This document shows positions 12,172-12,750 of a stretch of DNA of 64,000 nucleotides, piece after piece (position 1 is the stretch's first letter; every line of letters begins with the position of its first letter). The translations under genes were made by a program, and so were the position numbers. Under the pieces are notes generated by a model, which saw only the letters and a list, made by a program, of their open reading frames with translations, was not told the origin of the DNA and made no database searches. Source of the DNA: Porpolomopsis calyptriformis (Eukaryota > Basidiomycota > Agaricomycetes > Agaricales > Hygrophoraceae); NCBI GenBank assembly GCA_951640195.1, contig OX621169.1, positions 2,046,001 through 2,110,000 of the forward strand, read 5' to 3'.

Positions 12172-12750
12172 ATGCCCGCAGAACGCTCACACCAAACTGC
12201 TCGCAAGTCTACTGGTGGTCGTCCACCCCGCGCTCCTCGTATGTCCACTGGAGGACAACCCCCTCGCCGCGCTCTCCCTCCGCTCGCTTCCACCTCCTCT
12301 GCCTACGGTGAAGCTGAGCTCGCCAGACAACTCTGGCAACATAACCATCGCGCGCGTAACCGGGACCTTCCCATATGGCCAGAAGAAATCGTCGCGCCAC
12401 CCATCCCACCCAAGCAAATCATCGAGTCGTTACACAAGGACGTCGAATACTACAAAAACGAAATCGCGAGATTGAACGAGGAATTGTATAATCAAGGAAT
12501 GAGCTTGGATGGAAAGAGAAGAGCAAGTGAGTATTGGCGAGAACAGGCCAAACACTGGGAGACGAAATATGAGGAAGTCGCAAAGGTACTTCCCCATCTT
12601 GATTCCCCGGCTCCCCCTGTTTTCCCGGGTCCGCTCATCGTTCCCCCCGGTTCGTCGTCGAACCCCATCACCATCCCTGACGACGACGATACTTCCCCAG
12701 CCGACATTATTTCCCTGTCGACCGCTGTCTCCGACAAGGACTTAATCTAG
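12172..12750 (+). CDS. Third ORF of the chromovirus with a histone H3-tail-like N-terminus
   Basis: An intact 192-residue protein from ATG 12172, lying 122 bp after pol and 80 bp before the 3' LTR. Residues 8-16 are QTARKSTGG, identical to residues 5-13 of histone H3 including Lys9 and Ser10, followed by RPPR where H3 has KAPR. A second, imperfect copy follows (RMSTGGQPPRR, residues 23-33). Residues about 85-145 are predicted coiled coil (ESLHKDVEYYKNEIARLNEEL). The C-terminal third is Pro/Ser-rich and holds NPITIPDDDD, which resembles a SUMO-interaction motif. No stop is present although gag and pol have several. An in-frame upstream Met at 12082 would add 30 residues ahead of the motif. I infer a chromatin-directed accessory protein; function is unproven. 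Confidence 0.75.
   Translation: MPAERSHQTARKSTGGRPPRAPRMSTGGQPPRRALPPLASTSSAYGEAELARQLWQHNHRARNRDLPIWPEEIVAPPIPPKQIIESLHKDVEYYKNEIARLNEELYNQGMSLDGKRRASEYWREQAKHWETKYEEVAKVLPHLDSPAPPVFPGPLIVPPGSSSNPITIPDDDDTSPADIISLSTAVSDKDLI

What the first reader, a model, noticed from the sequence alone, without database searches (positions are those of the whole stretch)
12172..12282. Retrotransposon protein with a histone H3-tail mimic (QTARKSTGG)
The third ORF of the chromovirus begins MPAERSH-QTARKSTGG-RPPR. Nine consecutive residues equal H3 residues 5-13 around Lys9/Ser10, at almost the same distance from the N-terminus as in H3, and PR recurs at the H3 Pro16-Arg17 position. A second, weaker copy follows (RMSTGGQPPRR). 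The same element encodes an integrase chromodomain, a module known in chromoviruses to read methylated H3. The protein also has a coiled coil and a SUMO-motif-like NPITIPDDDD, and its frame is intact while gag and pol are riddled with stops. Inference: the element makes its own chromatin-like ligand, which could be methylated by the host H3K9 machinery, could recruit or titrate HP1-type readers, or could bind its own integrase to guide or restrain integration. Tail mimics are known in some viral and host proteins; I am not aware of one described for a fungal Ty3 element.
Basis: partly seen in the sequence, partly recalled or inferred. Interest (0 to 1): 0.92.

Follow-up and report, generated by a model that had tools for sequence, protein, structure and literature searches.

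The report
Retrotransposon protein wearing histone H3 tail
A family of fungal jumping genes makes a small extra protein whose front end copies the part of histone H3 that cells mark to silence jumping genes, and natural selection has kept that protein intact, so it may be a decoy against silencing.

Summary
ORF3 (window 12172-12750) starts MPAERSH-QTARKSTGG-RPPR, an exact copy of H3 residues 5-13. About 100 copies lie in the same 33.5 Mb genome. Of 91 full-length copies 65 keep the nonapeptide exactly, as do 50 of the 60 stop-free ones; the K9-equivalent is Lys in 60 of 60. Pairwise dN/dS of ORF3 is 0.08-0.29. The 7-residue core was found only in ORF3 (69 places) and three H3 genes. ORF3 is a disordered tail on a predicted coiled coil (weak model).

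In a composite element the chromodomain is out of frame while ORF3 stayed intact. This argues against 'ligand for its own integrase' as the main role and favours a host target: the Suv39/Clr4-type methyltransferase and HP1 that the genome appears to encode.

New leads: (1) a second, degenerate repeat has Met at the K9 position (60 of 60), the K-to-M change known to trap H3K9 methyltransferases; (2) non-histone proteins of Armillaria, Daedalea, Peniophora and metagenomes carry 3-4 H3K9 tails each, K14 mostly replaced.

Function is inferred, not shown; no other fungal genome could be searched for the element.

The parts
6527..6896 (+). 5' LTR (370 bp, TG...CA)
   Evidence: repeat with 12831-13200; 10 differences in 370, all transitions; no matching 5-bp flanks
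7009..8268 (+). gag, open frame of 419 codons
   Evidence: Pfam Ty3_capsid 1.6e-8, zf-CCHC 9.7e-7
8646..9422 (+). protease piece of pol (interrupted frame)
   Evidence: Pfam RVP_2 6.7e-7
9630..10340 (+). reverse transcriptase / RNase H piece of pol
   Evidence: RVT_1 1.6e-14, RT_RNaseH_2 1.1e-27
11009..11395 (+). integrase core piece of pol
   Evidence: rve 1.1e-10
11873..12046 (+). integrase C-terminal chromodomain with full aromatic cage (EEYEVEQ ... KWVGYP)
   Evidence: Pfam Chromo 2.9e-13; the Y, W and Y are present in 30 of 30 near copies, some of which have stops elsewhere in the domain
12172..12750 (+). ORF3, 192-aa accessory protein: disordered H3-like tail plus predicted coiled coil
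12193..12219 (+). H3 residues 5-13 mimic QTARKSTGG (K9-equivalent K12 at 12205-12207)
12238..12270 (+). second, degenerate H3-like repeat RMSTGGQPPRR with Met at the K9 position (M24, 12241-12243)
   Evidence: 21 of 30 bases identical to the first repeat; M24 in 60 of 60 stop-free copies, 88 of 91 in all
12409..12597 (+). predicted coiled-coil helices, residues 80-111 and 115-142
   Evidence: AlphaFold2 model, mean pLDDT 54 overall, ten-residue means 52-91 over residues 81-140; coiled coil is my reading of the helices
12661..12690 (+). NPITIPDDDD, SUMO-interaction-like stretch (appearance only)
   Evidence: NPI and IP invariant in 11 of 11 aligned copies
12831..13200 (+). 3' LTR

Best explanation
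ORF3 is a real accessory protein of a Ty3/Gypsy chromovirus that displays an H3K9 tail (residues 5-13 plus Pro16-Arg17) on a coiled-coil oligomer. Most likely it engages the host's H3K9 silencing machinery as a decoy: the Suv39/Clr4-type methyltransferase binds and methylates K12, and/or HP1-type readers bind the methylated tail, so less of that machinery is available to silence the element. Shown: the motif, its N-terminal position, copy number, purifying selection on ORF3, and genes that look like both host partners. Inferred: expression, methylation, oligomerisation, binding and the anti-silencing effect.
For: About 100 copies (102 places fetched); exact nonapeptide in 65 of 91 full-length copies and 50 of 60 stop-free ones; K12 in 60 of 60. 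Pairwise dN/dS 0.08-0.29 in 55 comparisons of 11 representatives. In stop-free copies the motif has 5 synonymous and 0 nonsynonymous non-CpG codon states (P=0.0036 under neutrality); under a stricter rule for what counts as CpG, 5 and 2 (P=0.041). Tail predicted disordered, helices behind it. The genome has a pre-SET/SET/post-SET gene (L118) and a chromoshadow-like frame (L120). Copies carry many C-to-T/G-to-A changes at CpG, as I would expect of methylated, silenced repeats. In the composite element ORF3 lost 21 of 50 CpGs against L018, its flanks 26 of 29 without the leader (Fisher 3e-5) or 28 of 34 with it (3e-4), and its chromodomain is out of frame: ORF3 outlived the chromodomain. Non-histone fungal proteins keep 3-4 H3K9 tails with K14 replaced in 33 of 38 repeats.
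Against: No expression, methylation or binding data. The motif is among the most conserved 9-residue windows (9th of 183 in stop-free copies, 24th in all) but not the top one; parts of the coil region equal it. R11 is H or C in 7 of 60 stop-free copies and G15 or G16 is S in 3. A decoy would need high abundance. The five well-preserved composite copies differ by 0-9 of 579 bases in ORF3, so selection after their formation cannot be measured separately. The HP1 call rests on a weak match (E=1.2; 23.8 bits with its neighbours).
Confidence: 0.45

Rival explanations
1. Self-ligand: host-methylated ORF3 tail is bound by the element's own integrase chromodomain, forming an oligomeric platform that gathers, guides or restrains integrase.
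For: Same element; chromodomain has the full cage of group I chromodomains and the 30 near copies read keep it; a distinct coiled-coil ORF in a Ty3 element whose pol shows no chromodomain has no H3 motif in the 12 copies read.
Against: In the composite lineage ORF3 with the exact motif is intact while the chromodomain is out of frame and has lost nearly all its CpGs, and the copy read lacks the RT to integrase-core part. The chromodomain's own dN/dS on that branch is 0.19-0.45, so it is not shown to be fully neutral.
Confidence: 0.2
2. Tether: the methylated tail recruits HP1 so that the particle or pre-integration complex is held at heterochromatin or in the nucleus, helping rather than blocking.
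For: HP1-like frame present; helices could give valency; also works without an own chromodomain, as in the composite.
Against: Nothing in these calls places ORF3 in particles or links it to Gag or integrase.
Confidence: 0.15
3. The tail is used for another H3-tail partner (nuclear import, Ser10 kinase and 14-3-3 reading, acetyltransferase), not for H3K9 methylation.
For: Q8, T9, A10, S13 and T14 as well as K12 are invariant in the 60 stop-free copies; the whole H3 5-13 stretch is kept, not only ARKS.
Against: The K14 position is R, C or H in 60 of 60 stop-free ORF3 copies and not Lys in 33 of 38 related fungal repeats while K9 is kept, which points to K9. Caveats: the repeat search pattern required ARK; a looser pattern found only three chance places without ARK; the four Armillaria proteins are near relatives and not independent.
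Confidence: 0.12
4. Chance or neutral relic.
For: In decayed copies R11 turns to H or C like other CpG arginines.
Against: No match of the 7-residue core outside ORF3 and H3 genes in 33.5 Mb; dN/dS well below 1; exact motif in lineages 23-25% diverged in protein.
Confidence: 0.03

Closest known systems
Viral histone H3 mimics (influenza H3N2 NS1 ARSK, SARS-CoV-2 ORF8 ARKS, adenovirus protein VII AKKRS; review PMC10208167, passages read; that ORF8 acts so is disputed, PMC10833455, search listing)
   Same: a parasite protein copies a modifiable H3-tail motif
   Different: 4-5 residues there; here 9 exact plus PR, at the N-terminus, in an LTR retrotransposon that also carries an H3K9me-type chromodomain
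Cellular ARK mimics (G9a/GLP automethylation sites, PMC9768651 passages; ATF7IP bound by MPP8, PMC6172828 search listing)
   Same: H3K9-like sequence methylated and read by HP1- or MPP8-type proteins
   Different: host proteins; shorter match (recalled)
H3K9M trapping of Clr4/G9a (Shan et al. 2016, PMC5030085, abstract and passages read)
   Same: Met at the K9 position, as in ORF3's second repeat; there a K9M peptide inhibits the Clr4 SET domain in vitro
   Different: ORF3's repeat has P at A7, R or H at R8, Q at K14; no inhibition shown
VANC anti-silencing proteins of Arabidopsis VANDAL transposons (PMC10398659, PMC5735166, abstracts in search listing)
   Same: transposon-encoded protein counteracting epigenetic silencing
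   Different: sequence-specific anti-silencing proteins; no histone mimicry (recalled)
[quoted passage not shown] 2010, PMC2864245, section 5 read; figure not held)
   Same: extra ORF besides gag-pol in fungal Ty3/Gypsy elements
   Different: no histone resemblance mentioned in the text read; whether any of those ORFs has it is unknown
Poly-H3-tail proteins (P0001-P0011 here: Armillaria, Daedalea, Peniophora, metagenomes)
   Same: non-histone proteins with the H3K9 tail; P0001 shares the 14-residue stretch QTARKSTGGRPPRA with ORF3
   Different: 3-4 intact tails; no similarity to ORF3 seen outside the tail; not known to be transposon-encoded

Membership tests
Ty3/Gypsy chromovirus | LTRs flanking gag and pol in the order PR-RT-RH-IN | tested here: met
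   pol frame interrupted in this copy
Ty3/Gypsy chromovirus | chromodomain at integrase C-terminus (group I: Y24/W45/Y48 cage; definition in passages of PMC3350952) | tested here: met
Histone H3 tail mimic | sequence identical to a modifiable H3 stretch, beyond chance and under constraint | tested here: met
Histone H3 tail mimic | is modified by H3 enzymes or bound by H3 readers | not testable with these tools
   needs peptide assays
Histone H3 or H3 variant | histone fold after the tail | tested here: not met
   no Pfam family at E<=1
Poly-H3-tail proteins (class noted here) | three or more intact ARK(S/T) tails | tested here: not met
   one intact and one degenerate repeat in ORF3 against 3-4 in P0001-P0011
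K-to-M inhibitor of a SET methyltransferase | Met at the target-lysine position, conserved | tested here: met
   M24 in 60 of 60 stop-free copies, 88 of 91 in all
K-to-M inhibitor of a SET methyltransferase | Arg immediately before it, and the flanking H3 residues | tested here: inconclusive
   R23 is R in 30 and H in 30 of 60; composite lineage reads HMSTER
K-to-M inhibitor of a SET methyltransferase | inhibits the enzyme | not testable with these tools
   needs enzyme assay

The most novel reading that the evidence does not exclude
ORF3 is a two-headed heterochromatin antagonist: the first repeat is a methylatable H3K9 bait for Clr4-type enzyme and HP1, the second is a natural 'H3K9M' that traps the methyltransferase, multiplied by the coiled coil. 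It belongs to a wider contest in basidiomycetes, in which host or transposon genes have repeatedly built poly-H3K9-tail proteins that mostly lack Lys14.
Probability: 0.12. Interest if true: 0.96.

Novelty: new variant of a known kind. Interest (0 to 1): 0.86.

Why it matters
If true, an LTR retrotransposon carries both a reader-type domain for methylated H3K9 (chromodomain) and a copy of the substrate, giving a direct test of whether transposons fight heterochromatin by histone mimicry. A natural K9M-like sequence would be an evolved counterpart of oncohistones. The poly-H3-tail proteins found on the way (Armillaria, Daedalea, Peniophora) lack any Pfam name and could be multivalent HP1 ligands or sinks in fungi.

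Tried and rejected
Chance: rejected. One-copy capture: rejected. Internal rather than N-terminal tail through an upstream ATG: rejected. Capture of an H3 exon: considered because one host H3 gene (L043) appears to have a 25-nt exon coding QTARKSTGG and the other two have an intron right after the same residues (splice sites read by eye); not adopted, since ORF3 also resembles H3 at P16-R17 beyond the boundary and the fungal multi-tail proteins do too. Stop counts as proof of selective ORF3 upkeep: of 30 nearest copies 3 have a stop in ORF3, 8 in a 128-aa and 7 in a 160-aa integrase piece, but these copies were chosen by ORF3 similarity, so not used. Nothing found: single-sequence protein search (none at E<=10 among 178 candidates) and two viral-contig scans. 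The chromoshadow search gave nothing at E<=0.001, and its 14 control genomes gave nothing either; at E<=10 it gave one weak piece. Relatives of the element in other fungal genomes could not be searched: the DNA collections here are prokaryotic, viral, plasmid or metagenomic, and no metagenome scan was allowed. Ten paper searches listed no retrotransposon-encoded H3-tail mimic; listings of at most 25 papers each, open-access library only.

Full report
WHAT IS THERE. The window holds one copy of a Ty3/Gypsy chromovirus, LTRs 6527-6896 and 12831-13200 (10 differences in 370, all transitions; no matching 5-bp flanks). Gag is an open frame (7009-8268), pol is split into several frames (protease, RT, RNase H, integrase core, integrase C-terminus with chromodomain). 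Between the chromodomain stop (12049) and the 3' LTR lies ORF3 (12172-12750, 192 aa), beginning MPAERSH-QTARKSTGG-RPPRAP-RMSTGGQPPRR. No Pfam family matches ORF3.

IS IT CHANCE? The window lies in an unnamed 33.5 Mb genome, evidently a fungus (my inference). A DNA pattern allowing every codon for QTARKSTGG matches 70 places, the reversed control 0. The shorter TARKSTG pattern matches 72 places (reversed control 1), of which 69 lie in ORF3 copies and 3 in histone H3 genes. ORF3 itself has 128 matches, some of them pieces of one copy and some weak matches to another family, about 100 separate copies (102 places read).

IS IT SELECTED? Of the places read, 98 show the N-terminus and 91 are full length in one frame; 60 of the 91 have the ATG and no stop. 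The nonapeptide is exact in 50 of these 60 and in 65 of all 91; K12 is K in 60 of 60 and 89 of 91. In stop-free copies the motif's departures are R11 to H/C (7 of 60, CpG transitions) and G15 or G16 to S (3 of 60). Codon states in the motif not explained by CpG transitions are 5 synonymous and 0 nonsynonymous in stop-free copies (P=0.0036). If a change counts as CpG only in the copy's own sequence context, the two G-to-S states become nonsynonymous non-CpG states, and it is 5 and 2 (P=0.041). With all 91 copies it is 9 and 4, two multi-step states left out (P=0.0073). Pairwise dN/dS of ORF3 among 11 representatives is 0.08-0.29. The motif is the 9th most conserved of 183 nine-residue windows in stop-free copies and 24th in all copies; stretches in and beside the coil are as conserved, so the whole protein is constrained, not the tail alone. 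The leader before the ATG has non-triplet indels and an in-frame upstream ATG in only 8 of 31 copies (the window copy among them), so the H3-like stretch is most likely the real N-terminus. A model from 11 sequences is weak overall (pLDDT 54) and shows no structure up to residue 42 and helices 43-64, 80-111 and 115-142.

COMPOSITE ELEMENT. About twenty further places encode a different protein with a weakly similar coil (30-33% identity in the matched part) and, in the 12 copies read, no H3 motif. In the copy examined (L031) it follows a Ty3 pol in which Pfam finds RT, RNase H, integrase zinc and SH3 pieces but no chromodomain. Seven of these places lie 1115-1117 bp downstream of an ORF3 copy on the same strand: five well preserved, one with a stop, one lacking the ORF3 N-terminus. 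In the one copy read in full (L119), 1.2 kb of the chromovirus 3' end with ORF3 sits between a frame with protease hits and the integrase end of the second element; the RT to integrase-core part of L031 has no match in the 9.9 kb. There ORF3 is intact with the exact motif, and the chromodomain is out of frame with the upstream integrase remnant. Compared with four chromovirus copies, CpGs lost in the composite are 23-27 of 23-31 in the flanks but 21-25 of 48-50 in ORF3 (Fisher P 8e-6 to 8e-4). That count left out the leader between chromodomain and ORF3, which lost few; with it the flanks lost 25-28 of 28-35 (P 3e-4 to 3e-3). The chromodomain's own dN/dS on this branch is 0.19-0.45 (8 comparisons), so it is broken by frame and CpG loss rather than shown fully neutral. 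I read this as ORF3 being kept for a reason that does not need the element's chromodomain. That is inference: the five well-preserved copies differ by 0-9 of 579 bases in ORF3, so the timing cannot be resolved.

HOST PARTNERS. One gene has pre-SET (E 1.6e-19), NHSCDPN-type SET and post-SET cysteine motifs, as in Suv39/Clr4/DIM-5 (SET and post-SET read by eye, motif names recalled). One frame looks like an HP1 chromoshadow half with basic hinge (weak score). The element chromodomain keeps the three cage residues in 30 of 30 near copies, as group I chromodomains do (PMC3350952, passages).

WIDER FINDING. A profile of 11 ORF3 sequences found six proteins at E<=1. They are not ORF3 homologues over their length: they share the H3 tail, and carry it 3-4 times. 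A second profile search gave 4013 proteins at E<=0.1, with only the candidates sharing most words scored and the best 120 listed; the top 11 have no precomputed Pfam domain, while the others listed carry core-histone domains. The 11 include Armillaria (four species), Daedalea quercina and Peniophora, all Agaricomycetes; the other five are metagenomic and of unknown host. They hold 38 repeats, twelve of them in the four related Armillaria proteins. At the K14 position 33 of 38 are not Lys (R 22, H 7), while K9 is kept; my first search pattern required ARK, but a looser one found only three chance places without it. ORF3 and P0001 share QTARKSTGGRPPRA, including three changes from H3 (K14R, A15P, K18A), which suggests that ORF3's tail may come from such a gene rather than from H3. 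Whether these proteins are host or transposon genes is not known.

SECOND REPEAT. ORF3's residues 23-32 look like a degenerate tandem copy of residues 11-20 (21 of 30 bases identical), with Met at the K9 position. M24 is Met in 60 of 60 stop-free copies and 88 of 91 in all. H3K9M traps Clr4, and a K9M peptide inhibits it in vitro (PMC5030085, abstract and passages). Against: the preceding Arg is His in 30 of 60, the composite reads HMSTER, no K-to-M repeat occurs in the 11 fungal proteins, and an ATG codon could also be kept for other reasons. Hence low probability, high interest.

VERDICT.

Noticed in passing
P0001-P0011: Non-histone proteins of Armillaria, Daedalea quercina, Peniophora and metagenomes with 3-4 H3K9-tail repeats each and K14 mostly replaced; no Pfam name in the eight scanned (one had two sub-threshold DUF matches).
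   Followed up: partly
L119 4400-5600 (G000:C1:520400-521600): Composite element: chromovirus 3' end with ORF3 inside a second Ty3 element; seven such pairings at 1115-1117 bp spacing, one copy read in full.
   Followed up: partly
L031 3746-4267 and about 19 further places: Second Ty3 family with its own 173-aa ORF after a pol without chromodomain; its helical part is weakly similar to ORF3's coil.
   Followed up: partly
L043 1914-1938: One host histone H3 gene appears to have a 25-nt exon coding QTARKSTGG; the other two H3 genes have an intron right after the same residues.
   Followed up: partly
window 12123-12165: A TTATAATC and CT-rich stretch before the ORF3 ATG, TTATAATC present in the 15 leader rows printed; possible internal promoter, the only hint how ORF3 is expressed.
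   Followed up: no
L001 versus L018: ORF3 differs far more at synonymous sites (dS 0.48) than the adjacent chromodomain (dS 0.11), suggesting recombination that swaps ORF3 alleles between subfamilies.
   Followed up: no
whole genome G000: Very many chromodomain-coding places (150 scored of 718 candidates), so chromoviruses are probably abundant in this genome.
   Followed up: no
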